This document shows, piece after piece, positions 47,748 through 47,877 of a stretch of DNA of 64,000 bases; within the stretch, counting starts at the first letter, position 1, and every line of letters begins with the position of its first letter. The translations under genes and the position numbers were made by a program. The notes below the pieces were generated by a model that made no database searches, was not told the origin of the DNA, and saw nothing but the letters and a program-made list of their open reading frames with translations. The stretch lies in the IMG/VR virus record IMGVR_UViG_3300025131_011243, positions 58,592 to 122,591 of that record; one strand, given 5' to 3'. Origin of the DNA: a virus.

Positions 47748-47877
47748 GCCTTGTCTAAGTTTCAGGACGGTTTCTTGGGTAACGTGCAAGATTTGAACTT
47801 GCGACCTTCACTTCCTAATAGTGACGCTCAACCTACTGAGCTAACGTTTGTAACGTCCAAATTGTTGGAGACAAGGC
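47748..47877 (-). tRNA. Probable permuted tRNA (anticodon UAG) flanked by split 54-nt element (A)
   Basis: Between 47845 and 47776 lies a tRNA-like body: D-stem GCTC/GAGC, anticodon stem TCACT/AGTGA with loop ATTAGGA (anticodon TAG), short variable loop, T-arm GCAAG TTCAAAT CTTGC, then ACGTTAC-CCA. The 5' acceptor next to the D-arm is incomplete. After the CCA comes GAAAC, which with GT of the body would make a 5' strand GAAACGT pairing at 6 of 7 positions. The flanks are the two halves of the shared element: GCCTTGTCT (47877-47869) pairs with AGACAAGGC (47756-47748), and GGACG with CGTCC; TACAAAC ends the upstream half. Confidence 0.55.

What the first reader, a model, noticed from the sequence alone, without database searches (positions are those of the whole stretch)
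47748..47877. Second probable permuted tRNA with anticodon UAG and class I architecture
A short-variable-arm tRNA body with anticodon UAG (normally leucine, which has a long arm) lies between the two halves of the element. Its missing 5' acceptor bases (GAAAC) occur after the 3' end (ACGTTAC-CCA). One mismatch (A-A) remains in the acceptor stem. An ordinary class II tRNA-Leu(UAG) exists at 49598. So this one may have another amino-acid identity or be decaying.
Basis: partly seen in the sequence, partly recalled or inferred. Interest (0 to 1): 0.75.

Follow-up and report, generated by a model that had tools for sequence, protein, structure and literature searches.

The report
Permuted phage tRNA inside intron-like element
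In a lineage of very large bacteriophages, many tRNA genes are interrupted, or wrapped inside out, by a previously uncatalogued ~54-nucleotide structured RNA element that looks like a tiny intron; the tRNA with anticodon UAG in this window is wrapped by one copy, so it is probably released as a circle and then opened.

Summary
The tRNA is real, and its surroundings matter more than the tRNA. A class I tRNA with anticodon UAG (window 47779-47849, minus strand) lies between the two halves of a ~54-nt RNA element with two helices (P1, P2) and conserved joining strands. I found 39 copies in six phage records and further copies in a seventh. The helices covary strongly (95.1% of cells paired against 77.7% in shuffles). 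No Rfam family matches. In the window, linear copies interrupt tRNA-Met and tRNA-Phe like introns. ARAGORN calls none of 16 interrupted tRNAs as encoded, and 13 of 16 after in-silico removal. Three other tRNAs, one of them Leu(UAA) in this window, are unambiguously permuted: the 3' half precedes the 5' half, with 7/7 acceptor stems. For the UAG tRNA itself permutation is not proven. Four of its five 'missing' bases (AAAC) also stand directly upstream, as the element's own conserved end UACAAAC; only base 1 favours the permuted reading. A homologue in a second phage keeps UAG, class I form and all stems, which argues against decay. Best explanation: excision and joining give a circular pre-tRNA that RNase P opens. 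Splicing, exact cut sites and the catalyst are not shown.

The parts
47846..47877 (-). Upstream (3', 'B') half of the permuted element around the UAG tRNA: GCCTT-GTCTCC-AAC-AATTT-GGACG-T-TACAAAC
   Evidence: P2 strand GCCTTGTCT pairs with AGACAAGGC downstream; P1 strand GGACG pairs with CGTCC downstream
47779..47849 (-). Class I tRNA body with anticodon UAG; the contiguous 5' AAAC (47849-47846) is shared with the element's conserved end
   Evidence: ARAGORN; Rfam tRNA 50.9 bits; homologue L006 10698-10769
47776..47778 (-). Encoded CCA directly after acceptor strand ACGTTAC (47785-47779)
   Evidence: Sequence
47770..47774 (-). GAAAC after the 3' end: alternative 5' acceptor strand in the permuted reading; only the G is specific to that reading
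   Evidence: Sequence
47748..47770 (-). Downstream (5', 'A') half of the element: CCGTCCTGAAACTTAGACAAGGC
47882..48016 (-). tRNA-Phe(GAA) gene interrupted in the D arm; acceptor GGGAGAG/CTCTCCC 7/7 across the insert
47942..47995 (-). Linear element copy inside tRNA-Phe
   Evidence: Model R1 56.1 bits, E 1.2e-10, (the copy is in the model)
48040..48113 (-). 'Mini' permuted copy: B half 48113-48084, 21-nt exon 48083-48063, A half 48062-48040
48127..48268 (-). tRNA-Met(CAU) gene interrupted in the D arm; acceptor GGGGGAG/CTCCCCC 7/7
48187..48240 (-). Linear element copy inside tRNA-Met
   Evidence: Model R1 54.7 bits, E 2.5e-10, (the copy is in the model)
48477..48516 (-). B half of the permuted element around tRNA-Leu(UAA)
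48382..48476 (-). Unambiguously permuted tRNA-Leu(UAA): T arm, acceptor TATGTTC and ACCA (48476-48443) precede acceptor GAACGTA, D arm and anticodon arm (48438-48382)
   Evidence: ARAGORN silent as encoded, tRNA-Leu(taa) when read as a circle
48349..48381 (-). A half of the permuted element around tRNA-Leu(UAA)
49598..49683 (-). Ordinary class II tRNA-Leu(UAG)

Best explanation
The UAG tRNA is the 'exon' of a circularly permuted copy of a new, very small intron-like RNA element. Shown by sequence: the two halves pair through P2 (closing the whole unit) and P1, as in linear copies where the same two strands fold around a short hairpin loop inside a tRNA. Inferred: the element folds, cuts occur next to P1 (5' site) and at UAC^AAAC or UACAAAC^ (3' site), and the two exon ends are joined. 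In a linear copy this restores an interrupted tRNA. In a permuted copy it closes the tRNA into a circle in which CCA is followed (here after AG) by the 5' acceptor strand; RNase P then opens the circle at the tRNA 5' end. Whether the element catalyses this itself or is cut by a nuclease and sealed by a ligase is undecided (about even odds). The UAG tRNA is then an elongator-type class I tRNA reading CUA/CUG; its amino acid is unknown.
For: Two helices with strong covariation over 36 copies in six phage records (95.1% of cells paired against 77.7+-1.2 shuffled; covariation score 0.592 against 0.236+-0.019; slid controls at or below 49% paired). RNAalifold finds the same two helices unprompted. 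Pairing of A and B halves is cis-specific (P1 168/192 against 137.7+-4.0 when halves are exchanged). Base swaps inside P2 are compensated (GGAC/GTCC to GCAC/GTGC and to GAAC/GTTC). ARAGORN of 16 interrupted tRNAs as encoded and 13 of 16 after removal; 15 of 16 have a 7/7 acceptor stem across the insert. LR756511 yields a clean tRNA after removal (GGCGCGTTAGTTTAACGGTAAAC|ACAAGCC...). Three permuted tRNAs (Leu(UAA) window, Lys(UUU) LR756511, Ile(GAU) L202) are not called as encoded and are called when read as a circle. The only two copies departing from TACAAAC (TACAAGC in L006 tRNA-Gln, TACATGC in L202 tRNA-Cys) carry instead the 3' D-stem strand that their own tRNA needs, as expected if bases after UAC end up in the exon. 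A homologous UAG unit lies in a second phage (L006 10675-10800).
Against: No RNA data: neither excision nor ligation is shown. Exact cut sites are unresolved: in several D-arm and variable-loop copies the tail before P1 is 6-13 nt too long for a normal tRNA, often pairing back on exon 1, and ARAGORN accepts them only with that tail trimmed; with 30 junctions tried per gene, 13/16 is partly permissive, and a few of the calls are of a wrong isotype. Some spliced D loops lack G18G19 (L006 10442-, LR756511 Met). Mini copies with 15-48-nt exons have no evident use. For the UAG tRNA a contiguous reading needs only one acceptor pair fewer.
Confidence: 0.62

Rival explanations
1. Contiguous tRNA with processing hairpins: the UAG tRNA is an ordinary linear tRNA starting at ...UAC|AAACGT, and the flanking element halves form a stem that guides nucleolytic processing; nothing is joined.
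For: AAAC is contiguous with the body; of the acceptor-type units inspected by hand, L006 UAG is 7/7 in both readings, and L210 Arg and a second LR756511 unit pair slightly better contiguously.
Against: The same element interrupts tRNA-Met and tRNA-Phe next door, and the Leu(UAA) tRNA in the same cluster cannot be read contiguously. In the window copy the contiguous reading gives C1.C72 and A2.A71.
Confidence: 0.2
2. Protein-processed intron (a variant of the best explanation): a phage or host endonuclease recognises the P1/P2 element and a phage RNA ligase seals the ends.
For: RNA_ligase (PF09414) genes over the cut-off in G001 (one) and LR756511 (two); the element is small for known self-splicing RNA.
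Against: No tRNA-splicing endonuclease (PF01974) and no RtcB (PF01139) in the six records; such ligases are common in large phages for tRNA repair (own knowledge). The conserved unpaired strands fit either a ribozyme core or a protein site.
Confidence: 0.35
3. Degenerate or permuted group I introns around tRNA exons.
For: The related phage L210 has two true group I introns in tRNA genes of the same cluster; permuted group I intron-exon constructs make circles in vitro.
Against: No group I match in the window region even at E<=5 nor in an LR756511 stretch at E<=1; about 54 nt leaves no room for P3-P9.
Confidence: 0.04
4. Decaying tRNA remnants invaded by small repeats, without function.
For: Odd D loops, mini copies, and some bodies too short for a cloverleaf (L210 copy 3).
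Against: Compensated P1/P2 and 15 of 16 perfect acceptor stems across inserts in diverged phages.
Confidence: 0.06

Closest known systems
[quoted passage not shown]
   Same: 3' half encoded before 5' half; proposed circular pre-tRNA opened at the acceptor end by RNase P and tRNase Z; both interrupted and permuted genes occur in one genome
   Different: Those use bulge-helix-bulge motifs and a tRNA-splicing endonuclease, and the 2014 review lists only six algae and one archaeon. Here the junctions carry a sequence-conserved P1/P2 element, the genomes are phages, and PF01974 is not found
Group I introns in bacterial and phage tRNA genes (RF00028)
   Same: Interrupt tRNA genes; two lie in the same tRNA cluster of the related phage L210
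   Different: About 190-200 nt with P3-P9 core there, against about 54 nt here and no match to RF00028
Engineered permuted intron-exon (PIE) group I circles
   Same: Intron 3' half - exon - intron 5' half, giving a circular exon
   Different: Natural here, different and much smaller element, tRNA exon; splicing not yet shown
Permuted two-piece tmRNA genes
   Same: Permuted RNA gene with acceptor halves in swapped order (own knowledge; mentioned in PMC3978253)
   Different: The two pieces stay separate in tmRNA; no flanking conserved element

Membership tests
Circularly permuted tRNA gene | 3' half encoded upstream of 5' half | tested here: inconclusive
   UAG tRNA: 6/7 permuted against 5/7 contiguous acceptor pairs; met for the neighbouring Leu(UAA)
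Circularly permuted tRNA gene (BHB type) | Bulge-helix-bulge motif at the junction | tested here: not met
   By inspection: the junction carries P1 with conserved strands GRACUU, CCNAC and UACAAAC in 36 copies, not two 3-nt bulges around a 4-bp helix
Circularly permuted tRNA gene (BHB type) | tRNA-splicing endonuclease available | tested here: not met
   PF01974 absent from six phage records, several of them fragments; the host is unknown
Group I intron | Catalytic core matching RF00028 | tested here: not met
   No match in window 47600-48700 at E<=5; positive control in L210 67.0 and 65.1 bits
Any Rfam 15 family | Match at gathering score outside the tRNA body | tested here: not met
   Only tRNA/tRNA-Sec in the window; only tRNA and the two L210 group I introns in L214, L210, L202, L006
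Permuted intron-exon circle | Ligated circular exon RNA | not testable with these tools
   No RNA data
tRNA-Leu | Long variable arm (class II) | tested here: not met
   Variable loop of ordinary class I length; class II Leu(UAG) is separate at 49598-49683

The most novel reading that the evidence does not exclude
The ~54-nt element is a self-splicing ribozyme of a new class, the smallest known, used in linear form to remove itself from phage tRNAs and in permuted form to make circular pre-tRNAs.
Probability: 0.32. Interest if true: 0.97.

Novelty: categorically new. Interest (0 to 1): 0.86.

Why it matters
If spliced, this is an intron type outside groups I, II and BHB, only about 54 nt long, and the first permuted tRNA genes I could find for phages. 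It would show how large phages keep tRNAs that standard gene finders miss (0 of 16 called as encoded). It would also offer a very small RNA element for making circles, and a natural case in which linear and permuted forms of one element serve the same set of genes.

Tried and rejected
Group I/II intron: no Rfam match even at loose E-values. BHB splicing: no motif on inspection, no PF01974. RtcB: absent. Scan patterns were off by one base in the P1 spacing, so those scans, including the single genome-contig scan, cannot be read as absence in bacteria; corrected for viral contigs. Five bacterial genomes without a match to model R1 are too few to conclude, as the tool itself warns. Most loci from the loose permuted pattern are chance; only L034 and L006 are real. 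Exchange of halves between neighbouring units rejected: the six P2 pairs are kept in 36/36 copies with the assignment used. Reading-frame evidence for elements inside protein genes (LR756511 around 289262-289650; L006 9050-9220) was suggestive only: no uninterrupted homologue found. A P0 hairpin between the exon 1 tail and exon 1 is strong in about half the long-tailed copies and exceeds 300 shuffles in sum (103.5 against 84.7+-4.9), but is not universal. A 'wrong codon' reading of CUA: CTA usage is ordinary; nothing decisive.

Full report
What is there. On the minus strand of the window, five copies of one small motif stand in 800 bases of a tRNA cluster. Each copy has an A part (P1 strand, GRACUURGAC, P2 strand) and a B part (P2 strand, GUCYCCNAC, P1 strand, UACAAAC). 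In two copies A precedes B with a short loop between, and the copy sits inside the D arm of tRNA-Met(CAU) or tRNA-Phe(GAA). In three copies B precedes A, and what lies between them is a tRNA-Leu(UAA) in swapped order, a 21-nt stretch, or the UAG tRNA of the finding.

The UAG tRNA. ARAGORN and Rfam both see it, with class I variable loop and anticodon UAG. Its 3' end ACGTTAC-CCA is followed by AG-AAAC, and AAAC is also the end of the upstream half (UACAAAC), so four of the five 'missing' 5' bases are on both sides. Permuted reading GAAACGT/ACGTTAC gives 6 of 7 pairs, contiguous CAAACGT gives 5 of 7; A2.A71 remains either way. So the sequence alone favours permutation of this tRNA by one base pair. 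In the homologous unit of G001 (L006 10675-10800) the acceptor is AAACAAT/ATTGTTT, 7 of 7 in both readings, and the tail after CCA is exactly AAAC, so a joined circle would read CCA|AAACAAT with the RNase P site at the junction.

Homologues. Pattern scans of IMG/VR and a BLAST hit in the phage collection gave L006 (390-kb record), L034, L202, L210, L223 and GenBank LR756511.1 (595 kb, uncultured phage). With the window, I aligned or tabulated 39 copies from six records and used 36 in the alignment. In the window's record, G001 and LR756511 the exact motif-B matches lie in one tRNA-rich stretch on one strand. The same ~65-residue ORF was read beside the cluster in the window (47495-47701), L006, L210 and LR756511.

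Structure. The count on the alignment gives 95.1% standard pairs against 77.7+-1.2 in shuffles, ten pairs changed on both sides, and at most 49% when partners are slid. RNAalifold returns the same helices. Exchange of A and B halves between copies lowers P1 pairing from 168 to 137.7+-4.0 of 192. The permuted copies obey the same pairs as the linear ones, which is the main reason to treat B-exon-A as one unit. In building the alignment an artificial GAAA loop joined the halves of permuted copies; it lies outside the counted pairs.

Intron behaviour, inferred. None of 16 linear tRNAs is called by ARAGORN as encoded, 13 are called for at least one of 30 trial junctions, and 15 have perfect acceptor stems across the insert. 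The clearest is the LR756511 tRNA with anticodon UCG, which becomes canonical after removal at the predicted ends. Three permuted tRNAs (Leu(UAA), Lys(UUU), Ile(GAU)) are invisible as encoded and are called with the expected isotype when the exon is read as a circle. The two copies that depart from UACAAAC carry the D-stem strand their own tRNA needs, which argues that the 3' cut is UAC^ rather than UACAAAC^; ARAGORN calls tRNA-Cys of L202 only with UAC^. Other genes, such as tRNA-Met and L210 copy 1, are called only with UACAAAC^, so the 3' site is not settled. On the 5' side the cut is less clear still, because several copies have a 6-13-nt tail that often pairs back on exon 1.

Machinery. 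RNA ligases of the PF09414 type are encoded in G001 and LR756511; RtcB and the archaeal-type splicing endonuclease are not found in the records searched. This leaves a ribozyme or an unknown nuclease plus ligase.

Known kinds. Permuted tRNA genes were known from six algae and one archaeon and tied to BHB motifs (PMC3978253). The huge-phage survey counts tRNAs with standard tools and its main text does not mention introns (PMC7162821). Eight literature searches of the held library found no description of this element; preprints and most subscription papers are not held there, so prior description cannot be excluded.

Verdict. The element itself is well supported as a conserved RNA structure (my confidence 0.97), as something removed from tRNAs (about 0.8), and as a circle-maker around the UAG tRNA (about 0.6).

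Noticed in passing
window 48113-48040; L006 8743-8815, 10580-10650, 10902-10975; L214 (reverse complement) 4884, 4961, 5484: 'Mini' permuted copies whose exon is only 15-48 nt, often with a GTTT that could pair with the AAAC end and ending in AAAY; no tRNA inside. Function unexplained.
   Followed up: partly
L214 reverse complement 2400-2530; L223 first 60 bases (minus strand): Permuted units around class I tRNAs with Ser anticodons CGA and apparently UGA, sharing the anticodon stem (TYACT/AGTGA) of the UAG tRNA: class I tRNAs with Leu/Ser anticodons recur in this position.
   Followed up: partly
LR756511.1 about 289262-289650 (minus strand): Two element copies appear to interrupt a small protein-coding frame (MGDVAAERSLLGS-VDDERLRLEVR-EDFTKKPNFEVEAW...) and a third lies upstream with a compensated P2 (GGAAGG/CCTTTCC).
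   Followed up: partly
L210 7988-8175 and 8980-9178 (minus): Two group I introns (67.0 and 65.1 bits) in tRNA genes of the same cluster as the small elements.
   Followed up: yes
L006 10805-10897: Odd tRNA-like gene that ARAGORN cannot assign (anticodon given as 'aa'); an anticodon UUA (ochre reading) is one register.
   Followed up: no
window 43835-44901: ThiF-like E1 (best NCBIfam 1.2e-29, all below cut-offs; PRTRC ThiF 4.8e-13) next to an ORF with only a weak desampylase (JAB-type) match, with VWA-looking ORFs, a PP2C-like ORF and a kinase-like ORF around: resembles a PRTRC-type cassette in a phage.
   Followed up: no
window 40164-41268: Cluster of five tRNA-Ser genes (GCU twice, GGA, CGA, UGA); the UGA one scores as tRNA-Sec in Rfam (48.2 bits).
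   Followed up: no
L223 minus strand, copy at 150-204: 10-bp hairpin GGGAGTGGTC-AAAT-GACTGTTTTC between the 5' exon and the bases just before P1, like a guide strand; 4-7-bp counterparts in several other copies.
   Followed up: partly
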